Assembly: GCF_010550695.1 (NCBI RefSeq)
Contig: NZ_JAAGOB010000007.1
Span: 62,001-126,000 of the forward strand
Direction of reading: 5' to 3'
DNA length: 64,000 nt
Origin: Phytoactinopolyspora alkaliphila
GTDB lineage: Bacteria; Actinomycetota; Actinomycetes; Jiangellales; Jiangellaceae
In this document: positions 843-44,089 of the stretch, one piece after another
Numbering within the stretch: position 1 is the first letter of the stretch
Layout: the number at the start of each line of letters is the position of its first letter
The notes under the pieces: model-generated
What the model was told of the DNA's origin: nothing
Database searches by the model: none
What the model saw: the letters and a program-made list of their open reading frames with translations, nothing else
Position numbers and translations under genes: made by a program

Positions 843-914
843 GGGCGCATAGCTCAGCGGTAGAGCACTGGTCTTACAAACCAGGGGTCGTTGGTTCGAA
901 CCCAACTGCGCCCA
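843..914 (+). tRNA. tRNA-Val (anticodon UAC), intact copy at attL
   Basis: A full cloverleaf can be folded. Acceptor GGGCGCA (843-849) pairs with TGCGCCC (907-913). Anticodon stem CTGGT/ACCAG (868-872 and 880-884) encloses loop CTTACAA, with anticodon TAC at 875-877. The T arm contains GGTTCGAACCC. The terminal CCA is not encoded. The 3' half from base 868 is repeated exactly at 44039, so the phage used this gene as its attachment site and its attP restored the tRNA. Confidence 0.97.
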
Positions 915-918
915 CCCC
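868..918 (+). other. attL: attL core (51-bp direct repeat)
   Basis: The 51 bases from the tRNA-Val anticodon stem to four bases past its discriminator are identical to 44039-44089. The flanking bases differ at both ends (A867 versus C44038, A919 versus C44090), which fixes the repeat length. The element between the copies is 43,171 bp including one core. Anticodon-stem to 3'-end identity is typical of tyrosine integrases. Confidence 0.96.
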
Positions 919-1963: not shown

Positions 1964-2054
1964 GTCAACACGCCATCGCTGATGTGACAACTGCGGCCCC
2001 GGCCGGTGCTACCAACACCGAGCCGGGGCCTAGACCGCCTAGTAGGAGGCGACC

Positions 2055-2276
2055 ATGGCAAGCATTCTGCCACCGAAAGCGCACGCGGCCGCAGGGCAGT
2101 TGGAGGACGCGCTCACCACGTGGCGCAACGGCACCCGCCCCCACGCCCGCACCAGAGCCGCCGGCGAACGCGCCGTTGCGCTGTGCGGGGACATCATCGT
2201 CGAGTTTCAGAAGCTGCGGGACCAGCTCACGACCGAGCTCGGCCAGTACGATGACGCGCAGAGGAAGGGGACGTGA
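2055..2276 (+). CDS. Small helical protein upstream of the RyR-domain gene
   Basis: The gene encodes 73 residues starting at ATG 2055 behind a strong AGGAGGCGACC site. The composition predicts two amphipathic helices (AAGQLEDALTTW and IIVEFQKLRDQLTTEL) and no membrane segment. Its stop overlaps the next start as TGATG, so the two are translationally coupled and probably work together. A partner or regulator role for the next gene is only inferred from this coupling. I do not recognise the family. Confidence 0.65.
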   Translation: MASILPPKAHAAAGQLEDALTTWRNGTRPHARTRAAGERAVALCGDIIVEFQKLRDQLTTELGQYDDAQRKGT

Positions 2277-3169
2277 TGGAGCCGCAGGAGCTAGGCCCGG
2301 AAGCCGTGCAGAGTATTTACGCCAGGGAGTCGCAGGAACTAAACGCTGTCGGGTTCGCCCTTAGTCAGGTCGGTGAACTTCCCATGCATATCCTTCGCGC
2401 GGACGGTGGCGCGGTCAGGTCAGCTTGTATCGAGTCGTTCTTCTTGAATGTACGACTCCTTGCCGACTTCCTCGTGAAGAACCCCAGCGCCAAGGATTTC
2501 TCGTGCCGAGACTTCGGATGGACGCCGGAGGCGACGGAGGCTGAGGAAAGGCTGTATACGAAGGACGACCATACGACAATGTGGTACCTGGCGTCGCAGC
2601 ACCTCGCGCATTTCAGCAAAGAGCGAATCGTGGATCCGGCATCGTATGTGCCACCAACCGAGCTACCAATCTTGCTGAAAGCTGCTGGGTCCGCAGTCTT
2701 CGAGGTCATGGGACGGTTTGTGTCATTTCTTCGTGCGCGGAATCATCAGTACGTTGACCTGATCGACTACGAACGCAGCCGCGACCTCTTCGAGCGGGAG
2801 TGGGTCGCCACCGCGCGTTCGCCAGCATTGTCCGCCGAAGAGATCGCCCGCGTCTGCCACGAGGCCAACCGTGCCCTCCAGCTCGTCGACGGCGACCCGG
2901 CACCATCCCGGCCGTGGGATGACGCCCCGACATGGCAACGCGAGTCGGCCGTCGCGGGCGTTCGCAACGCGCTTGCAGAAACGCACGATCCCGCCGCACA
3001 CCACCAGGCGTGGGTTGACGCGAAGGCTGCCGACGGATGGACATACGGGACCACGAAGGACCCCGAGGCGCGCACCCACCCGTGCATGCTGCCCTACGAT
3101 GATTTGCCCGCGAATCAGCGTCGCAAGGATGTGCTGTTCCTCAGCATCGTCAATTCGCTCACGCAATGA
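2276..3169 (+). CDS. RyR-domain protein with unknown helical N-terminal domain
   Basis: The protein has 297 residues (ATG 2276; GTG 2273 is an alternative). The C-terminal 105 residues read like the RyR domain (PF02026) common in phages: IARVCHEANRALQ, then AWVDAKAADGWTYGTTKD, HPCMLPYDDLP and a closing KDVLFLSIV helix. RyR domains are proposed to bind nucleotide-like ligands. Phage copies are, as far as I know, usually stand-alone and about 100-130 residues. Here about 185 extra residues precede it, mainly helical, with an SACIESFFLNVRLLADF helix. A defence or superinfection role is plausible for a plus-strand cargo gene but is not shown by the sequence. Confidence 0.75.
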   Translation: MEPQELGPEAVQSIYARESQELNAVGFALSQVGELPMHILRADGGAVRSACIESFFLNVRLLADFLVKNPSAKDFSCRDFGWTPEATEAEERLYTKDDHTTMWYLASQHLAHFSKERIVDPASYVPPTELPILLKAAGSAVFEVMGRFVSFLRARNHQYVDLIDYERSRDLFEREWVATARSPALSAEEIARVCHEANRALQLVDGDPAPSRPWDDAPTWQRESAVAGVRNALAETHDPAAHHQAWVDAKAADGWTYGTTKDPEARTHPCMLPYDDLPANQRRKDVLFLSIVNSLTQ

Positions 3170-3170
3170 A

Positions 3171-3176
3171 TAACGT
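3171..3176 (+). promoter_or_regulatory. Possible leaderless -10 (TAACGT) for the gene at 3183
   Basis: TAACGT lies 6 nt before GTG 3183 and there is no purine-rich ribosome site. The spacing matches the leaderless signals at 4931, 30493, 33345, 33831, 40874 and 40942. No -35 is evident, so this is the weakest member of the set. Confidence 0.35.
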
Positions 3177-3182
3177 GTGCGC

Positions 3183-3353
3183 GTGATCACTGTCGAGGTC
3201 GGCTACACCACGGTCCGCCCCGTCATCCCTGATCAGCACACGTCGTGGGTGCTCGTCGGCGAGGATCGGCCGGTGGAGGCACAGTTGATCGCGGCCCAGA
3301 TAGTGGCGTCACACTGCGAGATGGTCACGTCGACGCGCCTGGTGCGAACGTAA
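3183..3353 (+). CDS. Small conserved-type actinobacterial protein, 56 residues
   Basis: A GTG-started frame of 56 residues begins MITVEVGYTTVRP and ends at TAA 3351. It resembles short phage and integrated-element proteins with a T(T/V)RPVxPDxHTxW start and a helix carrying AAQIVASHCEMVTSTR. It starts 13 bases after the RyR gene stop and has no ribosome binding site, so it may be leaderless or coupled. Function unknown. The frame is short, but the protein-like composition supports it. Confidence 0.55.
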   Translation: MITVEVGYTTVRPVIPDQHTSWVLVGEDRPVEAQLIAAQIVASHCEMVTSTRLVRT

Positions 3354-3586: not shown

Positions 3587-4201
3587 ATGGCGTTCCCACA
3601 GAGGCTGGCCTCAGTTCTCACGGGCGCAACCTATGCGCAGTTGAACCGATGGCGAGATAAGGGCTTGGTGATTCCCGAGGTCAGGCCGTACCGGCCGCCA
3701 CTGTACTCGTTCCGCGACCTGATCTTACTTCGGTCACTGGTACGCCTCAGGGCGTCGACCTCGATGCAGAAAGTCAGCAAGGCGTTTCGGAACCTCGATC
3801 TGGTTGATCTTACCGAACATCCTTCCGAGTACAAGTTCGGAACTGATGGAAAGACCGTCTATGCAGGTCTGAACACGGGGGAGGCTATTGACCTTACAAA
3901 TAAGGTCGGGCAGATCGATTTTTTCACGTTTGAGCAGTTGATTGAGCGGTTCAAGAATTTTCGGGACGAGGAAGTGGTGAACTTCCGCCATCCATCGAAA
4001 CACGTGGAGGTCAAACTTCAGCGCATGGGCGGTTGGCCTACGATATCCGGGACACGAGTTCCCTATGACACGATCGCGGACCTGGTTGATTACCGCACCG
4101 TCTTTCCCAAGGACGTCCCTCATTTTTATCCAACCGTGTCGGCTGAGGCAGCGGAAGACGCCGTAAGATTCCAGCAACGAGTTGAGGCGGTGGCGGGTTG
4201 A
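3587..4201 (+). CDS. DUF433-family antitoxin with MerR-like HTH
   Basis: The protein has 204 residues. AAGGAGGTG at 3572-3580 is a near-perfect ribosome site and selects ATG 3587 over the GTG at 3578, which lies inside it. Residues about 5-70 resemble a MerR-type winged helix (LTGATYAQLNRWRDKG, then YSFRDLILLRSL). The last 60 carry the DUF433 pattern (GGWPTISGTRVPYDTIADLV), the fold seen in VapB-like antitoxins paired with DUF5615 toxins. The stop overlaps the next start, as expected for a toxin-antitoxin operon. It probably neutralises the toxin and represses its own promoter. Confidence 0.8.
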   Translation: MAFPQRLASVLTGATYAQLNRWRDKGLVIPEVRPYRPPLYSFRDLILLRSLVRLRASTSMQKVSKAFRNLDLVDLTEHPSEYKFGTDGKTVYAGLNTGEAIDLTNKVGQIDFFTFEQLIERFKNFRDEEVVNFRHPSKHVEVKLQRMGGWPTISGTRVPYDTIADLVDYRTVFPKDVPHFYPTVSAEAAEDAVRFQQRVEAVAG

Positions 4202-4611
4202 GGCGCCGCTTTTTCATTGACGAGAATCTTTCACCCGAACTTGAAAATCCGCTAGATCGAGTGTTCAGGCAACACAAGTTCACAAGTGCACGTAGAGCCG
4301 CTTTGCTCGGAACCGACGACCAAGACCTTTTCAGGGAGCTTTCCGCTCGACGTTACGGTGCGATAATTACTGAAGATCGCGAACAACTCGAAGCGCAATA
4401 CGAGCGGGCTGCATTGCGGGACGCAGGTCTCCATTGGCTAGGAGTCCCGAAGGTGCCAGCCAGAGGCATCGCTCAGATCGTTTACGCCACATCTGTGATT
4501 GTTCCTGCGGTGCTCTATGTCCTCGAAAATTGGCACGATATCCCGACGGCCTACTTCGCTCGTGAGCCCCGCATGGGCGACCACTCGGTTATCACTTGTG
4601 AAGCGCTCTGA
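4198..4611 (+). CDS. PIN-like DUF5615-family toxin
   Basis: The protein has 137 residues, starting with TTG 4198 inside the antitoxin stop (TTGA). The N-terminus RRFFIDENLSPEL has the FxxDxNL strand typical of the PIN-like DUF5615/Mut7-C fold. A second acidic cluster, ALLGTDDQDLF, and the strand GAIITEDREQ follow at about residues 40-63, so the usual acidic metal-binding positions are present. Adjacent DUF433 and DUF5615 genes are an established putative toxin-antitoxin arrangement. RNase activity is inferred. Its lower GC, with several AT-rich stretches, suggests separate acquisition. Confidence 0.78.
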   Translation: MRRRFFIDENLSPELENPLDRVFRQHKFTSARRAALLGTDDQDLFRELSARRYGAIITEDREQLEAQYERAALRDAGLHWLGVPKVPARGIAQIVYATSVIVPAVLYVLENWHDIPTAYFAREPRMGDHSVITCEAL

Positions 4612-31070: not shown

Positions 31071-31505
31071 TCATCGGGGCCTCCGTTTGGGAAGGCGGGG
31101 GATGCGGTTCATGGCTGCCCAACCGGCGCACAACATGGCCGGGGTGCCATCGACCTGGAACGGGCGAGAACCGCGAAGCACGGGGCTGTACGCGCCCGGA
31201 GGTGCGTCACGGGATGCGCCAGACGGGTGCGCCCAACGCACCACCGCCGGCATGCCGTCGTGGCAGTAGAACGGCTCATCGGCAGAGAATTCCGGCGGCT
31301 CACACGCGGCACGCTCCGGAGAGTCGGCCCGGTACGCGCAGTCATGACACGACTCAGCACGCACCGCCGACGGGCCCTCCCTGGCTGGCTCCGGCTCACT
31401 GTTGAGGACCTCAACCCAGCACGTACACGCACCCGTGACCGCCGCGCCAATGCAACAACCCGAATCCTCGTCCGGAGGAGGCATCACGTCGCTGTTCAGG
31501 CTCAC
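31071..31505 (-). CDS. DUF6283-like cysteine-rich protein
   Basis: The protein has 144 residues. GTG 31505 overlaps the methyltransferase stop as GTGA. The N-terminus has cysteines (GCCIG, ACTCW). The core reads SCHDCAYRADSPERA, PFYCHDGMPAVVRW, then MLCAGWAAMNR. This CxxCxxR, CH, CAGW order matches DUF6283 proteins of actinophages, presumably zinc- or iron-binding. The surrounding open frame is much longer, but only this part is credible. Confidence 0.65.
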   Translation of the reverse strand: MSLNSDVMPPPDEDSGCCIGAAVTGACTCWVEVLNSEPEPAREGPSAVRAESCHDCAYRADSPERAACEPPEFSADEPFYCHDGMPAVVRWAHPSGASRDAPPGAYSPVLRGSRPFQVDGTPAMLCAGWAAMNRIPRLPKRRPR

Positions 31506-33091
31506 GCGGCGTCTCCGTCCTGGTCGGTGATGAGGCCGAGTAGGCCCATGTCTTCGCCGGCGAGTTCGAGCGCGCGGCGGGGGTCGCGGCGTCGGGCGAT
31601 GCGGGCTTCGATGAGCGGCAGGTACTTGGTTTCGCGTTCGATGGCGATGCAGTGGAAGCCTTCGAGGAGGGCGGCTTCGACGGTGGTTCCGGAGCCGGCG
31701 AACGGCTCGAGGACCGTGCCGCCGGGTGGTGTGACGAGGCGGACGAGCCACCGCATCAGGTCGAGCGGTTTGACCGTCGGGTGCGCTACGCCGTTGACGC
31801 GGGGCCGTTCGCCGGCGTCGGCCTTGGCCTCGTACCGGAACACGGGGAAGAAACGGGATGCCCCGCCGCTGCCGGCGCCACGGGCGGGCGTGCATTCCTC
31901 CTGGCCCTTGAAGTCCCCGTAGGCGTCGCGGAACTTGTCGGACCCGCGACGGGTGGGGTTGGCGCCGCTCGTGAGTTCGCCGGTTTGCTCGTCGAGTTCA
32001 GCCGCCAGGCCCTCCTCGAGGACTACGTTCGTCGGCCAGCGGCCGGAATCCGACCCCGTGACGTAGTCATCAGAAATGTTCCCGCCGTGATAGCCCAACT
32101 CGGCGGTGTTCCTGCGCCTCGTGGATGCATCACCAATCCGGCAGGCGTCGATGTTCAGCGCGCCGGTGCCGTGCTCGAGGACGTTCGCTGCGACGGTGCC
32201 GGCGAGAGGCTTGCGTCCGACGACGATCGGCTCGAATCCAGGCTTGAGCGCGGTGCCCCATCCCTGCCACTTGCGGGCGGCGTCGGTGGAGTGCTTCGTA
32301 ATCTCCAGGTCAACGGCCCTCCGGTCTGCACCCTGGCCCGGTGCGACAGCCAGACGACCCGCAGTCCGGGTGCCGACCTTCTCGCGCTCGGCCTCAGCGA
32401 TGACCGATCCCCACTTCTCGTCGTCCATGTCGAGCAGGTCGCGCAATGCCGGCCACCACTTCGCCTCGGGGAACTGGTGATGCTCCCAGTTCCAGCAGGC
32501 GCCTGTCCGGGCACCGACGACCCGCTCTGACACGTCGGCTCGCGATAGGCCCGCGGCCGCCCTCCGCTCTGCAAGGTGCGCAGCGAACTCCGCATGCCGT
32601 ATGACACCTGGCCGCTTGTCGATCGCCTTGCTGACGTTCAGCGACTTGGGGAACCCGCTGCCGTACAGCCACGCGACAGAGTCGCGGATCTCGAAGCCGG
32701 CGTCCTCAACCGCGGCGGCGAGCCGGTGCCAGGTGCGGGAGCCGCCGAACGAGACCAGGTGACCGCCGGGCTTGAGTATGCGGAGGCACTCGAGCGCCCA
32801 CGCGTGGCACCACTGCTGGAAGCGTTGATTCGCCAACGATGACCGGTCGTAGCGGCCGGCTTCCATCGCTGGGTGTGGCGCACCGCCGTATGACACGTTG
32901 CTGCCCCCGTGTGCAGCGCTGAGCGGTCCGAAGTCGCCGGGTTGGTCCCACTGGTGGCCCATGAATCCGATGCCATAGGGCGGGTCGGTGACGACGGCGT
33001 CAGCGCTGGCGTCGGGCAGCTCGGCAAGCACCTCGAGGACGTCCCCGTGGTGCAGGGTCACGCGGTCGTCGGTGTAGTAGGGGTCGGTCAT
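31502..33091 (-). CDS. Site-specific DNA methyltransferase (beta class) with embedded HTH
   Basis: The protein has 529 residues. ATG 33091 overlaps the previous stop. The catalytic motif DPPYGIGF is at 36-43 and the AdoMet motif FAGSGTT near 464, the order of beta-class N4-cytosine/N6-adenine enzymes. HPTVKPLDLM precedes motif I. About residues 150-230 form an inserted XRE-like helix-turn-helix (FAAHLAERRAAAGLSRADVSE) with conserved tryptophans. No restriction endonuclease is next to it, so it is probably an orphan enzyme protecting phage DNA. The target site is unknown. Confidence 0.88.
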   Translation of the reverse strand: MTDPYYTDDRVTLHHGDVLEVLAELPDASADAVVTDPPYGIGFMGHQWDQPGDFGPLSAAHGGSNVSYGGAPHPAMEAGRYDRSSLANQRFQQWCHAWALECLRILKPGGHLVSFGGSRTWHRLAAAVEDAGFEIRDSVAWLYGSGFPKSLNVSKAIDKRPGVIRHAEFAAHLAERRAAAGLSRADVSERVVGARTGACWNWEHHQFPEAKWWPALRDLLDMDDEKWGSVIAEAEREKVGTRTAGRLAVAPGQGADRRAVDLEITKHSTDAARKWQGWGTALKPGFEPIVVGRKPLAGTVAANVLEHGTGALNIDACRIGDASTRRRNTAELGYHGGNISDDYVTGSDSGRWPTNVVLEEGLAAELDEQTGELTSGANPTRRGSDKFRDAYGDFKGQEECTPARGAGSGGASRFFPVFRYEAKADAGERPRVNGVAHPTVKPLDLMRWLVRLVTPPGGTVLEPFAGSGTTVEAALLEGFHCIAIERETKYLPLIEARIARRRDPRRALELAGEDMGLLGLITDQDGDAA

Positions 33092-33312
33092 GGCAGGCAC
33101 TCCTGACAGACGTAGTCCCCCTTGTCGTCACGCCCGGCACGCTCGTCCGCGTGGATAGCGCCCTCGCACCAGCCACACCGGCCTTCGAACCGCGCCACGA
33201 ACACCGCAACCACGCGGGCATCGTCGTTCGTAGACGCCTCCCCGGTTCGGCCGGTGCAGTGGGCGCATGAGGCGGTGGGGAGGTCGGAGAAGTCGCACCG
33301 GGGGTCAGGCAT
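33088..33312 (-). CDS. 74-residue zinc-binding protein
   Basis: ATG 33312 is used; the longer start would run into the divergent promoter. Cysteine pairs CAHC, CGWC and CQEC, with intervening FVARFEGR and GDYV, suggest one or two zinc ribbons as in small actinophage proteins. The stop overlaps the methyltransferase ATG. Function unknown; coupling suggests the two are made together. Confidence 0.6.
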   Translation of the reverse strand: MPDPRCDFSDLPTASCAHCTGRTGEASTNDDARVVAVFVARFEGRCGWCEGAIHADERAGRDDKGDYVCQECLP

Positions 33313-41667: not shown

Positions 41668-42531
41668 ATGACATCCCCGGACGAAGAGCTCGATCCCGAC
41701 GTTCTACGGGTCGAACTCGAATATCATCACGCAGCAGCCCGTCGACACGCCGCATACGCCAGAAGGTCCCGCGATCGACTACTCCAGGCACTCGCCGAAC
41801 GGATGACGCCGGAGCAGCGGCGAGCGTGGATACGACAGTCCACGAGGGCCATCAAGGCCGTCCTCATCGGCGCCTGCGGCTGGTTCATCGAGCAGGCCCG
41901 CGATCACACCGCACGCTCCGCTGTCGTGAGCGCGACCGCGCTCGTCGCCACCGGCTCCACGCAGGTAATCCCCACCGTGATCGAACGGCCGCCGCTCGTC
42001 ATCGCAATGGAGCAGCCAGCGCCGGAGGTGGTGACGCCGGAGCCACCGCCGTCTACGCCGGAACCGCCAGCGCCGACAGTGACCACCACGACCACAGCCA
42101 CGGCGACGGCTACCGCAACCGAGACCGTAACGGCCACGCCTCACCCACTGGACATCTCAACCCCCGAGCCGACACCCACGGCAACCGTTCCCCAACCCAC
42201 ACGCACGCCCAAAGCTGTGGCCGCGACGACGCCCCCCGACACCGAGCCCATGAACGAGCCGACGTTCTTCGTGCCCGAGAACCGCGTAACCATGCCGCCA
42301 ACTGTGCCAACGTCCACGCCAACGGCCACGCCGACACCTACGCGCTCTCCGGACGCCCCGCCGGCCGCGACGGAGTGTGTCGAGCTGCCGGAGAGGACGG
42401 GCGTCTCGGGAACCGTGTGCGAGCCGCCGCCGGAGCGTGACCCGGACGGGGAGTGGCTGGACTGCCTACAGCTGGAGAGGCTCACAGAGATCATGCGGTG
42501 CGTGCGGAACCCTGACAAGTGGTTCACCTAG
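41668..42531 (+). CDS. Thr/Pro-rich surface-type protein, lysogen side
   Basis: The protein has 287 residues, ATG 41668; no ribosome site precedes it, and CAGAAT lies 8 nt upstream. A helical N-terminus (HHAAARRHAAYARRSRDRLL) leads to a hydrophobic stretch (about 65-105) that may cross the membrane. About 120 residues of Thr/Pro/Ala low complexity follow (TVTTTTTATATATATETVTA). The C-terminus has four cysteines (ECVELPE, GTVCEPPPE, WLDCLQLE, MRCVRN). It follows the repressor on the plus strand and overlaps the integrase stop by 4 bp. It is probably exposed outside the membrane in lysogens. Confidence 0.65.
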   Translation: MTSPDEELDPDVLRVELEYHHAAARRHAAYARRSRDRLLQALAERMTPEQRRAWIRQSTRAIKAVLIGACGWFIEQARDHTARSAVVSATALVATGSTQVIPTVIERPPLVIAMEQPAPEVVTPEPPPSTPEPPAPTVTTTTTATATATATETVTATPHPLDISTPEPTPTATVPQPTRTPKAVAATTPPDTEPMNEPTFFVPENRVTMPPTVPTSTPTATPTPTRSPDAPPAATECVELPERTGVSGTVCEPPPERDPDGEWLDCLQLERLTEIMRCVRNPDKWFT

Positions 42532-43895
42532 CCGAGTTCCTGGAGGTACAGGGTGCCGGCCACTTCGCCGAGCGCTTCCGCGATGTGGCGAACATCTGCG
42601 TGCTTGTAGGCGTCCTGGACGGCGAGTGAGGCGTGCCCGGCGATCGCTTGAATGATCTTCGGGTCGACTCGGGCCTCCATCAGCAGCGTGACGGTGGTGT
42701 GTCGGGATTCGTGCGGCACGATGTCCGGCAGCCCCGCGGCCCGCAGGTGAGCGTCGAGGATCTTCGCGTCCTCCTGCCGGGAGATGGGGGAGCCGTCCTC
42801 ACGATGCCACACGAGGTTGTGGGGATTCGGTGTGGCGTCGGCCTTTCGGTGAGCCTTGATCGCTGCGTACAGGGGAGTGGGGATCGGGAGTATGCGGGTG
42901 GACCTCTCGCTCTTTGGGCGGATCAGACACATGCCGCCGGCGAGCTGGCGATACTCGAACTTGTCCGGCAGCCGGAGGACCTTGTCGGGGCAGTTTCCGC
43001 CCCGCTTGCGCCCGCACGGCCAGGTGCCGTCCTGGTCCTCCTCGGCACAACCATGGATGAAGGTCAACCGTTGCAGCTGCCAGGAGATGTCCATGATGCG
43101 AGCGTCGAGGTCCACACGGTCCCACGTGAGACCGAGGCATTCGCCTTGCCGGACTCCTGTCAGTAGCGCCATGGCCCACCGCGACGAGTTCCGATCGATC
43201 GGAGTGCCCTGATCGGTGGTGCTGCTGACGTAACGCAGGAGCGCCCGGCCCTGATCGGGTGTCAGCGCCGAACGGTCGGAGTCCCCACCGGCCGGTGCGT
43301 CCATCAGCTTGGCGACGTTCTGCATCACGAGGCCCTCGCGGATGGCATCGTTGAGGGCCTTGCGGATGGCGATGTGTGCGTGTGGCCGAGATCCCGCCTT
43401 GCCCCGCTTCTTCATGTCGGCATACAGGGCGCGCAGGTGTTCCGGGCGTAGTCGGTCGATGCGGTGCCGGCCGACGCCGGGGATGAGGTCGTTGGTGACC
43501 GAGTAGCGGTACCGGTCGTATGTGCTGGGTGCCTTGTGGGGGAGGACGAACTCGTCGAGCCATCGGGTCAGCCACGCGGCGACGGTGGGCCGCTGGAGGG
43601 GCACGTCGCCGTGCCGGGCGTGCTCCTTCTTCATGTCGTCCAGGGCGGCGTATGCGCCGTTCTCGGTTGCCGAGGTGCGTTGGGGCCGGCGCGGCTTCCC
43701 ATCCGGGCCTGGGCCGAGGTCGAGGCGCGCGACCCACATGCCTCGGCACTTATGCTTCGGCCGGACGAGTTTGACCGATCCATCGTCCTGCGTGACCTCT
43801 TTGCGTGGCGGGCATCCTCGGTCGAGATCGCATCGTTGGAATACGGCCCCCTCGCCGCGGCGGCGCTTCTTCTTCGCCGGTTGAGATGGACTCAT
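42528..43895 (-). CDS. int: Tyrosine integrase
   Basis: The protein has 455 residues, ATG 43895 behind AAGGGGG. The catalytic residues are all visible: R249 (LTGVRQGE), K328 (RPKSERSTR), H395 and R398 (HESRHTT), H421 (GHAS) and the nucleophile Y430 (DAYKHAD). Residues about 103-195 form the SAM-like core-binding domain, and the basic N-terminal part with three cysteines may bind the arm sites. An insertion with C283, C294 and C302 lies between the R and K motifs. It catalyses integration at tRNA-Val. Confidence 0.95.
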   Translation of the reverse strand: MSPSQPAKKKRRRGEGAVFQRCDLDRGCPPRKEVTQDDGSVKLVRPKHKCRGMWVARLDLGPGPDGKPRRPQRTSATENGAYAALDDMKKEHARHGDVPLQRPTVAAWLTRWLDEFVLPHKAPSTYDRYRYSVTNDLIPGVGRHRIDRLRPEHLRALYADMKKRGKAGSRPHAHIAIRKALNDAIREGLVMQNVAKLMDAPAGGDSDRSALTPDQGRALLRYVSSTTDQGTPIDRNSSRWAMALLTGVRQGECLGLTWDRVDLDARIMDISWQLQRLTFIHGCAEEDQDGTWPCGRKRGGNCPDKVLRLPDKFEYRQLAGGMCLIRPKSERSTRILPIPTPLYAAIKAHRKADATPNPHNLVWHREDGSPISRQEDAKILDAHLRAAGLPDIVPHESRHTTVTLLMEARVDPKIIQAIAGHASLAVQDAYKHADVRHIAEALGEVAGTLYLQELG

Positions 43896-43957: not shown

Positions 43958-44038
43958 ACTCAGTGCAGCGAATCGCCTCTGACCTGGCAGTATGTCGGTT
44001 CAGGTGATGTTTGCAGACGCTGGGATGATGGCGTAACC

Positions 44039-44089
44039 CTGGTCTTACAAACCAGGGGTCGTTGGTTCGAACCCAACTGCGCCCACCCC
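44039..44089 (+). other. attR: attR core (3' half of tRNA-Val)
   Basis: The core is identical over 51 bases to 868-918. It lacks the tRNA 5' half, so it is not a functional tRNA gene. It marks the right end of the prophage. From here to 44212 I see no gene. Confidence 0.96.

What the first reader, a model, noticed from the sequence alone, without database searches (positions are those of the whole stretch)
2055..3353. RyR domain fused to an unknown helical domain and coupled to a small helical protein
The C-terminal 105 residues of the 2276 gene are RyR-like, a domain proposed to sense nucleotide-type ligands in conflict systems. Phage versions known to me are short and stand alone, while this one carries about 185 extra N-terminal residues. 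The gene overlaps a 73-residue helical protein (2055) as TGATG and is followed closely by a 56-residue gene. Placement beside exported proteins and a toxin-antitoxin pair near attL marks it as cargo. A sensor-effector arrangement is a reasonable hypothesis.
Basis: partly seen in the sequence, partly recalled or inferred. Interest (0 to 1): 0.62.

Follow-up and report, generated by a model that had tools for sequence, protein, structure and literature searches.

The report
RyDEP-like RyR domain in prophage fusion
A gene carried by an integrated phage joins a domain that other phages use to soak up or destroy the bacterial Thoeris alarm signal to a second, so far undescribed helical domain, so it is most likely an anti-defence protein with an unexplained extra part.

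Summary
The gene is real. Window 2276-3169 (+) encodes 297 aa. Residues about 185-297 are an RyR domain (PF02026, above the curated cut-off). The gene sits 1.3 kb inside attL of a siphoviral prophage (868-44089) in an actinobacterium. RyR domains of this type are very common in phages: 291 records, at least 588 viral contigs. In May 2026 they were shown (RyDEP, PMC13232231, PDB 35TM) to cleave or sequester 2'/3'cADPR and so defeat Thoeris defence. All four ligand or catalytic residues of RyDEP are present here (H243, W246, H268, D285). The sequence is nearer to typical family members, including Pectobacterium phage CB4 (47%), than to the cleaving RyDEP (29%), so a signal sponge is the leading reading. 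The N-terminal about 180 aa match no Pfam, NCBIfam or PADLOC model but have stand-alone relatives in other actinobacterial genomes. No other RyR protein surveyed carries this domain, so the fusion is new. The sensor-effector idea is not excluded, but no TIR family was found in the host genome to make the signal, and the HEPN motif is absent. The 73-aa neighbour is not an RyR-specific partner: its relatives lie away from RyR genes.

The parts
2276..3169 (+). 297-aa fusion protein: N-terminal helical domain + C-terminal RyR (RyDEP-type) domain
2276..2815 (+). N-terminal domain (residues 1-180), unnamed family with stand-alone relatives; invariant E53-S-F, R60, H112-x-S-x-x-R117
   Evidence: no Pfam/NCBIfam/PADLOC match
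2828..3166 (+). RyR domain; ligand/catalytic residues H243, W246, H268, D285 (= RyDEP H75, W78, H100, D117)
2055..2276 (+). 73-aa helical protein, translationally coupled (TGATG); not RyR-specific
3177..3353 (+). 58-aa ORF (56 aa from GTG 3183) without ribosome-binding site or family match; doubtful gene
1990..2034 (+). strong G+C-rich hairpin without T run between the upstream gene and the 2055 gene
   Evidence: z = -4.55
868..918 (.). attL core within tRNA-Val (843-916)
44039..44089 (.). attR core at tRNA-Val (44015-44087)
42528..43895 (-). tyrosine integrase of the prophage
   Evidence: PF00589, 7.5e-19

Best explanation
The protein is a prophage-carried anti-defence protein of the RyDEP family. 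Its C-terminal RyR domain folds as a helical pocket that, by homology with RyDEP, dimerises and binds ADP-ribose-type immune signals (2'cADPR and/or 3'cADPR). It thereby keeps these from activating a Thoeris effector, most likely as a sponge and less likely as a glycosidase. The N-terminal helical domain is a separate module, also found alone in other actinobacteria, that has been joined to it. It may add oligomerisation, localisation or a second activity. Shown here: domain identity, conserved residues, prophage location, novelty of the fusion. Inferred: ligand, sponge mode, role of the N-domain.
For: RyR above the curated cut-off. 291 phage records and 588 or more viral contigs encode the same domain, with 47-59% identity to members such as Pectobacterium phage CB4 and a Streptomyces plasmid. 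All four RyDEP ligand/catalytic residues are kept here and in all 98 sequences aligned. Position Q54 of RyDEP is A here, as in most of the family. Published biochemistry: RyDEP cleaves 2'/3'cADPR; six of eight tested homologues bind but none of the eight cleaves; two of the binders, from Ruegeria and Pectobacterium phages, defeat Thoeris in vivo (PMC13232231). The AF2 model of the C-part is confident (pLDDT about 87-96) and its best PDB matches are RyR domains. It is the only RyR gene in the genome, inside a prophage.
Against: No binding or phage assay. Two of eight tested homologues did not form a stable complex with the signals (PMC13232231), so family membership does not guarantee the ligand. 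The N-domain is unexplained and sits in a cargo region beside a toxin-antitoxin pair, where defence genes are also found. No TIR family was detected in the host genome, so the prophage meets no such Thoeris in this host, at least by these models.
Confidence: 0.55

Rival explanations
1. Signal-gated defence effector: the RyR domain senses a cADPR-type signal and switches on the N-terminal domain (for example a HEPN-like RNase), giving the lysogen protection against other phages.
For: Cargo position between attL and the late genes, beside exported proteins and a PIN toxin pair. Weak structural resemblance of the low-confidence N-domain model to HEPN toxins: 5yep Z 7.7, 6m6u 7.5, 7bxo 7.3, 7ae6 7.2. 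One stand-alone relative lies between an HNH nuclease and a DNA methyltransferase.
Against: No TIR signal maker in the genome by PF13676 or PF01582. The HEPN Rx4-6H motif is not conserved; the family keeps H112-x4-R117 instead. Foldseek gives no significant match. Z under 13 is not meaningful for helical bundles (note). hhalign with AbiU2 gives probability 0.7%.
Confidence: 0.2
2. RyR domain binds another adenine-type ligand (ADPR, NAD derivative or other nucleotide signal) and the protein regulates phage or host metabolism rather than Thoeris.
For: Two of eight tested homologues did not bind cADPR signals stably, and animal RyR domains bind ATP/ADP analogues in the same pocket (PMC13232231). 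Large chromosomal RyR proteins of 600-900 aa are common in Actinomycetes; the one read has a TrkA/RCK-like look.
Against: The sequence belongs to the phage-type clade, not to the long chromosomal proteins.
Confidence: 0.17
3. A recent, perhaps non-functional gene fusion: an ordinary phage RyR gene accidentally joined to a neighbouring host gene.
For: The architecture was seen nowhere else. The N-part is lower in G+C (58.3%) than the C-part (66.4%) and the element (66.6%); only 3.5% of windows in the element are as low.
Against: The frame is open with coding-type G+C by codon position in both parts, all pocket residues are intact, and the start has a good ribosome-binding site.
Confidence: 0.08

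Closest known systems
RyDEP (gp78) of mycobacteriophage DyoEdafos, PDB 35TM (PMC13232231)
   Same: RyR fold, ligand/catalytic residues H75, W78, H100, D117 conserved; viral gene
   Different: 29% identity over the domain; RyDEP is 138 aa, lies in a NARP1 operon of a phage genome and cleaves the signals; here a prophage-cargo fusion, Q54 is A, and no NARP1 gene was seen among the neighbours scanned
Non-cleaving (sponge-type) RyDEP homologues from Pectobacterium and Ruegeria phages (PMC13232231)
   Same: Overall sequence type: CB4 47%, V14 33% identity; all pocket residues. Whether CB4 and V14 are the exact proteins tested is not known to me
   Different: 122-183 aa and without this N-domain
Phage_gp49_66 + RyR fusions (Salmonella phage Marshall gp85, Vibrio phage FGH)
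   Same: N-terminal domain fused to C-terminal RyR in one phage protein
   Different: The N-domain is of the N4 Gp49/Sf6 gene 66 family, unrelated to the one here
RyR protein of Streptomyces atratus plasmid (WP_331723363.1)
   Same: 59% identity in the RyR domain; small gene just upstream
   Different: 118 aa, RyR only
HEPN toxins (MntA-HepT, SO_3166, AbiU2)
   Same: Helical bundle; weak structural similarity of a low-confidence model
   Different: No conserved Rx4-6H motif, no significant profile match

Membership tests
RyDEP / viral RyR (PF02026) family | PF02026 match above the gathering score | tested here: met
   39.9 bits against 27.4
RyDEP / viral RyR (PF02026) family | Ligand-binding and catalytic residues H75, W78, H100, D117 | tested here: met
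   H243, W246, H268, D285; invariant in all 98 aligned sequences
RyDEP / viral RyR (PF02026) family | RyR fold | tested here: met
   C-part pLDDT about 87-96; best PDB matches are RyR domains with probability 1.00, though the best E-value is only 2.8e-3; PDB sequence matches incl. 35TM at 2.4e-11
RyDEP / viral RyR (PF02026) family | Encoded by a virus | tested here: met
   Inside a prophage with att repeats, integrase, portal and tail genes
RyDEP / viral RyR (PF02026) family | Binds or degrades 2'/3'cADPR and rescues phage from Thoeris | not testable with these tools
   needs biochemistry
RyDEP glycosidase subtype | Active glycosidase; sequence close to DyoEdafos gp78 | tested here: inconclusive
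   Catalytic dyad present but 29% identity and Q54 to A; the dyad is invariant in the whole aligned family, most tested members of which, as published, do not cleave
HEPN superfamily (for residues 1-180) | Rx4-6H motif | tested here: not met
   Not conserved in four relatives
HEPN superfamily (for residues 1-180) | HEPN fold | tested here: inconclusive
   pLDDT 56 model, Z 7-8 with several HEPN chains among unrelated bundles
Two-gene sensor-effector module with the 2055 product | Small gene co-occurs with RyR genes | tested here: not met
   Relatives of P0001 lie away from RyR genes; no phage match

The most novel reading that the evidence does not exclude
A one-protein signal-gated effector: a prophage has turned a RyDEP-type pocket into the sensor of a new toxic helical domain, so that cADPR made by any TIR in the cell triggers abortive infection (a third use of phage RyR domains besides cleavage and sequestration).
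Probability: 0.12. Interest if true: 0.8.

Novelty: new variant of a known kind. Interest (0 to 1): 0.4.

Why it matters
Phage RyR domains have only just been shown to cleave or soak up Thoeris signals. A fusion that adds an unknown, independently occurring domain offers a direct test of whether such pockets are ever used as sensors rather than sponges, and of what the orphan domain family does.

Tried and rejected
HMM searches of residues 1-180 and of the relatives in Pfam (E up to 10), NCBIfam and PADLOC gave nothing. tblastn of residues 1-180 in phages and plasmids gave only chance matches. Scans for the N-domain in viral contigs found no relative, and a scan of genome contigs gave one. Weak hits L005, L012 and L013 were not accepted as relatives: L012 and L013 cross a stop, L005 has E 0.01. 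AF2 on residues 1-180 with two sequences gave pLDDT 56; Foldseek found nothing significant, and the HEPN chains in the second look are not above the level expected for helical bundles. hhalign with two AbiU2 proteins gave probability 0.7%. STALD (PF18185) was searched in the own genome without a match, but the control rang nowhere, so this says nothing. An internal start giving an RyR-only product was sought; ATG 2708 and TTG 2828 have no well-placed ribosome-binding site. One alignment script took a wrong record for the window row; it was redone correctly.

Full report
What is there. Window 2276-3169 (+) encodes a 297-aa protein. Pfam gives RyR (PF02026) at E 5e-10, over its cut-off. tblastn shows that the homologous part is residues about 185-296, found in 287-291 phage records and 9 plasmids. 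The 73-aa ORF 2055-2276 overlaps it as TGATG and both have good ribosome-binding sites. The 56/58-aa ORF downstream has none and matches nothing.

Setting. 51-bp identical repeats at the 3' end of two tRNA-Val copies (868-918, 44039-44089), a tyrosine integrase (42528-43895), portal, minor tail protein, ParB and a DNA methylase mark a siphoviral prophage of about 43 kb. The gene lies 1.3 kb inside attL in a + strand cargo stretch, with a membrane-anchored protein upstream (phrog_6812) and a MerR/DUF433 + PIN pair downstream. It is the only RyR gene in the genome.

The RyR part is a known phage anti-defence domain. A 2026 preprint (PMC13232231; [quoted passage not shown] Six of eight other phage RyR domains tested bind these signals and none of the eight cleaves them; the two characterised further are nanomolar sponges that defeat Thoeris. 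I took DyoEdafos gp78 and twelve other RyR proteins and aligned them with the window protein. H243, W246, H268 and D285 correspond to the four residues; Q54 corresponds to A225. Identity is 29% to RyDEP, 47% to Pectobacterium phage CB4 and 59% to a Streptomyces plasmid protein. In 98 sequences the four residues never vary. A tree puts the window sequence in a clade of 18 that includes actinophage and actinobacterial plasmid proteins (support 0.89), far from RyDEP. Hence the ligand class is likely, and the sponge mode is more likely than cleavage, but neither is shown.

Is the fusion unusual? Phage RyR proteins are mostly 110-140 aa, but extended forms are not rare. The particular N-domain here, however, is in none of 84 viral RyR ORFs, no phage or plasmid record, and no tblastn match to the window protein in 29 RyR loci from Actinomycetes genomes reaches into it. 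As far as surveyed, this architecture is unique.

The N-domain. Stand-alone relatives of 165-194 aa exist in three other actinobacterial genomes: 44% identity over 94 residues in L003, 28% in L004, more distant in L011/L014 (the same Solirubrobacteraceae contig). Shared residues are E53-S-F, R60, L62, F65-L66, H112-x-S-x-x-R117. One relative sits between an HNH nuclease and a cytosine DNA methyltransferase; another lies in a 1-kb stretch bounded by a tRNA-His end repeat. The domain is rare and scattered, as cargo is: 4 of 394 genomes of the class, one of them the window's own and one at E 0.01. Its DNA is lower in G+C than the RyR part (58.3 against 66.4%), which suggests a separate origin. 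AF2 predicts helices at about 8-32, 45-68, 98-113, 130-154 and 165-179, with low confidence. Several HEPN toxins appear among structural near-matches (Z 7-8), but that is within noise for helical bundles, the Rx4-6H motif is missing, and profiles do not match. So a HEPN-like effector is a lead only.

The small partner. The 73-aa protein has a 63% paralogue elsewhere in the same genome beside sugar-metabolism genes, and a 39% relative in another genome beside unrelated genes, with no RyR nearby. It has no phage match. The translational coupling is therefore real, but a dedicated sensor-effector pair is not supported.

Mechanism. The best reading is an anti-Thoeris protein carried as prophage cargo. 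The sensor-effector reading needs a signal maker; neither PF13676 nor PF01582 finds a TIR in this genome, with working controls. That weakens but does not exclude it, since the prophage may move between hosts and TIR families can be divergent.

Verdict. A new variant of a recently described family: interesting as a test of whether phage RyR pockets can be sensors, but the core function is by now largely explained by published work.

Noticed in passing
window 3587-4611: MerR-HTH + DUF433 gene followed by a PIN_10/DUF5615 gene overlapping by 4 bases: a VapBC-like pair of low G+C (54-55%); phrog_31673 matches the first gene at 2.6e-64.
   Followed up: partly
window 1964-2060: Strong hairpin without a T run (z -4.55) between the 1430-1963 gene and the 2055 gene; the ribosome-binding site of 2055 falls in a second, smaller hairpin.
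   Followed up: partly
L018 1758-2426, L024 949-1821, L008 4415-5339: Phage_gp49_66 domain is fused to RyR in two phages, and in L008 a gene that looks like it by eye stands just upstream of the RyR gene: a recurrent partnership not mentioned in the parts of the RyDEP paper that I read.
   Followed up: partly
L035 6211-7272: A stand-alone N-domain gene occupies about 1 kb between a tRNA-His and a 32-bp copy of its end: a possible minimal integrated cargo unit.
   Followed up: partly
window 31502-33100: N6_N4 DNA methylase (PF01555) encoded by the prophage, with conserved parts at both ends of a 532-aa ORF.
   Followed up: no
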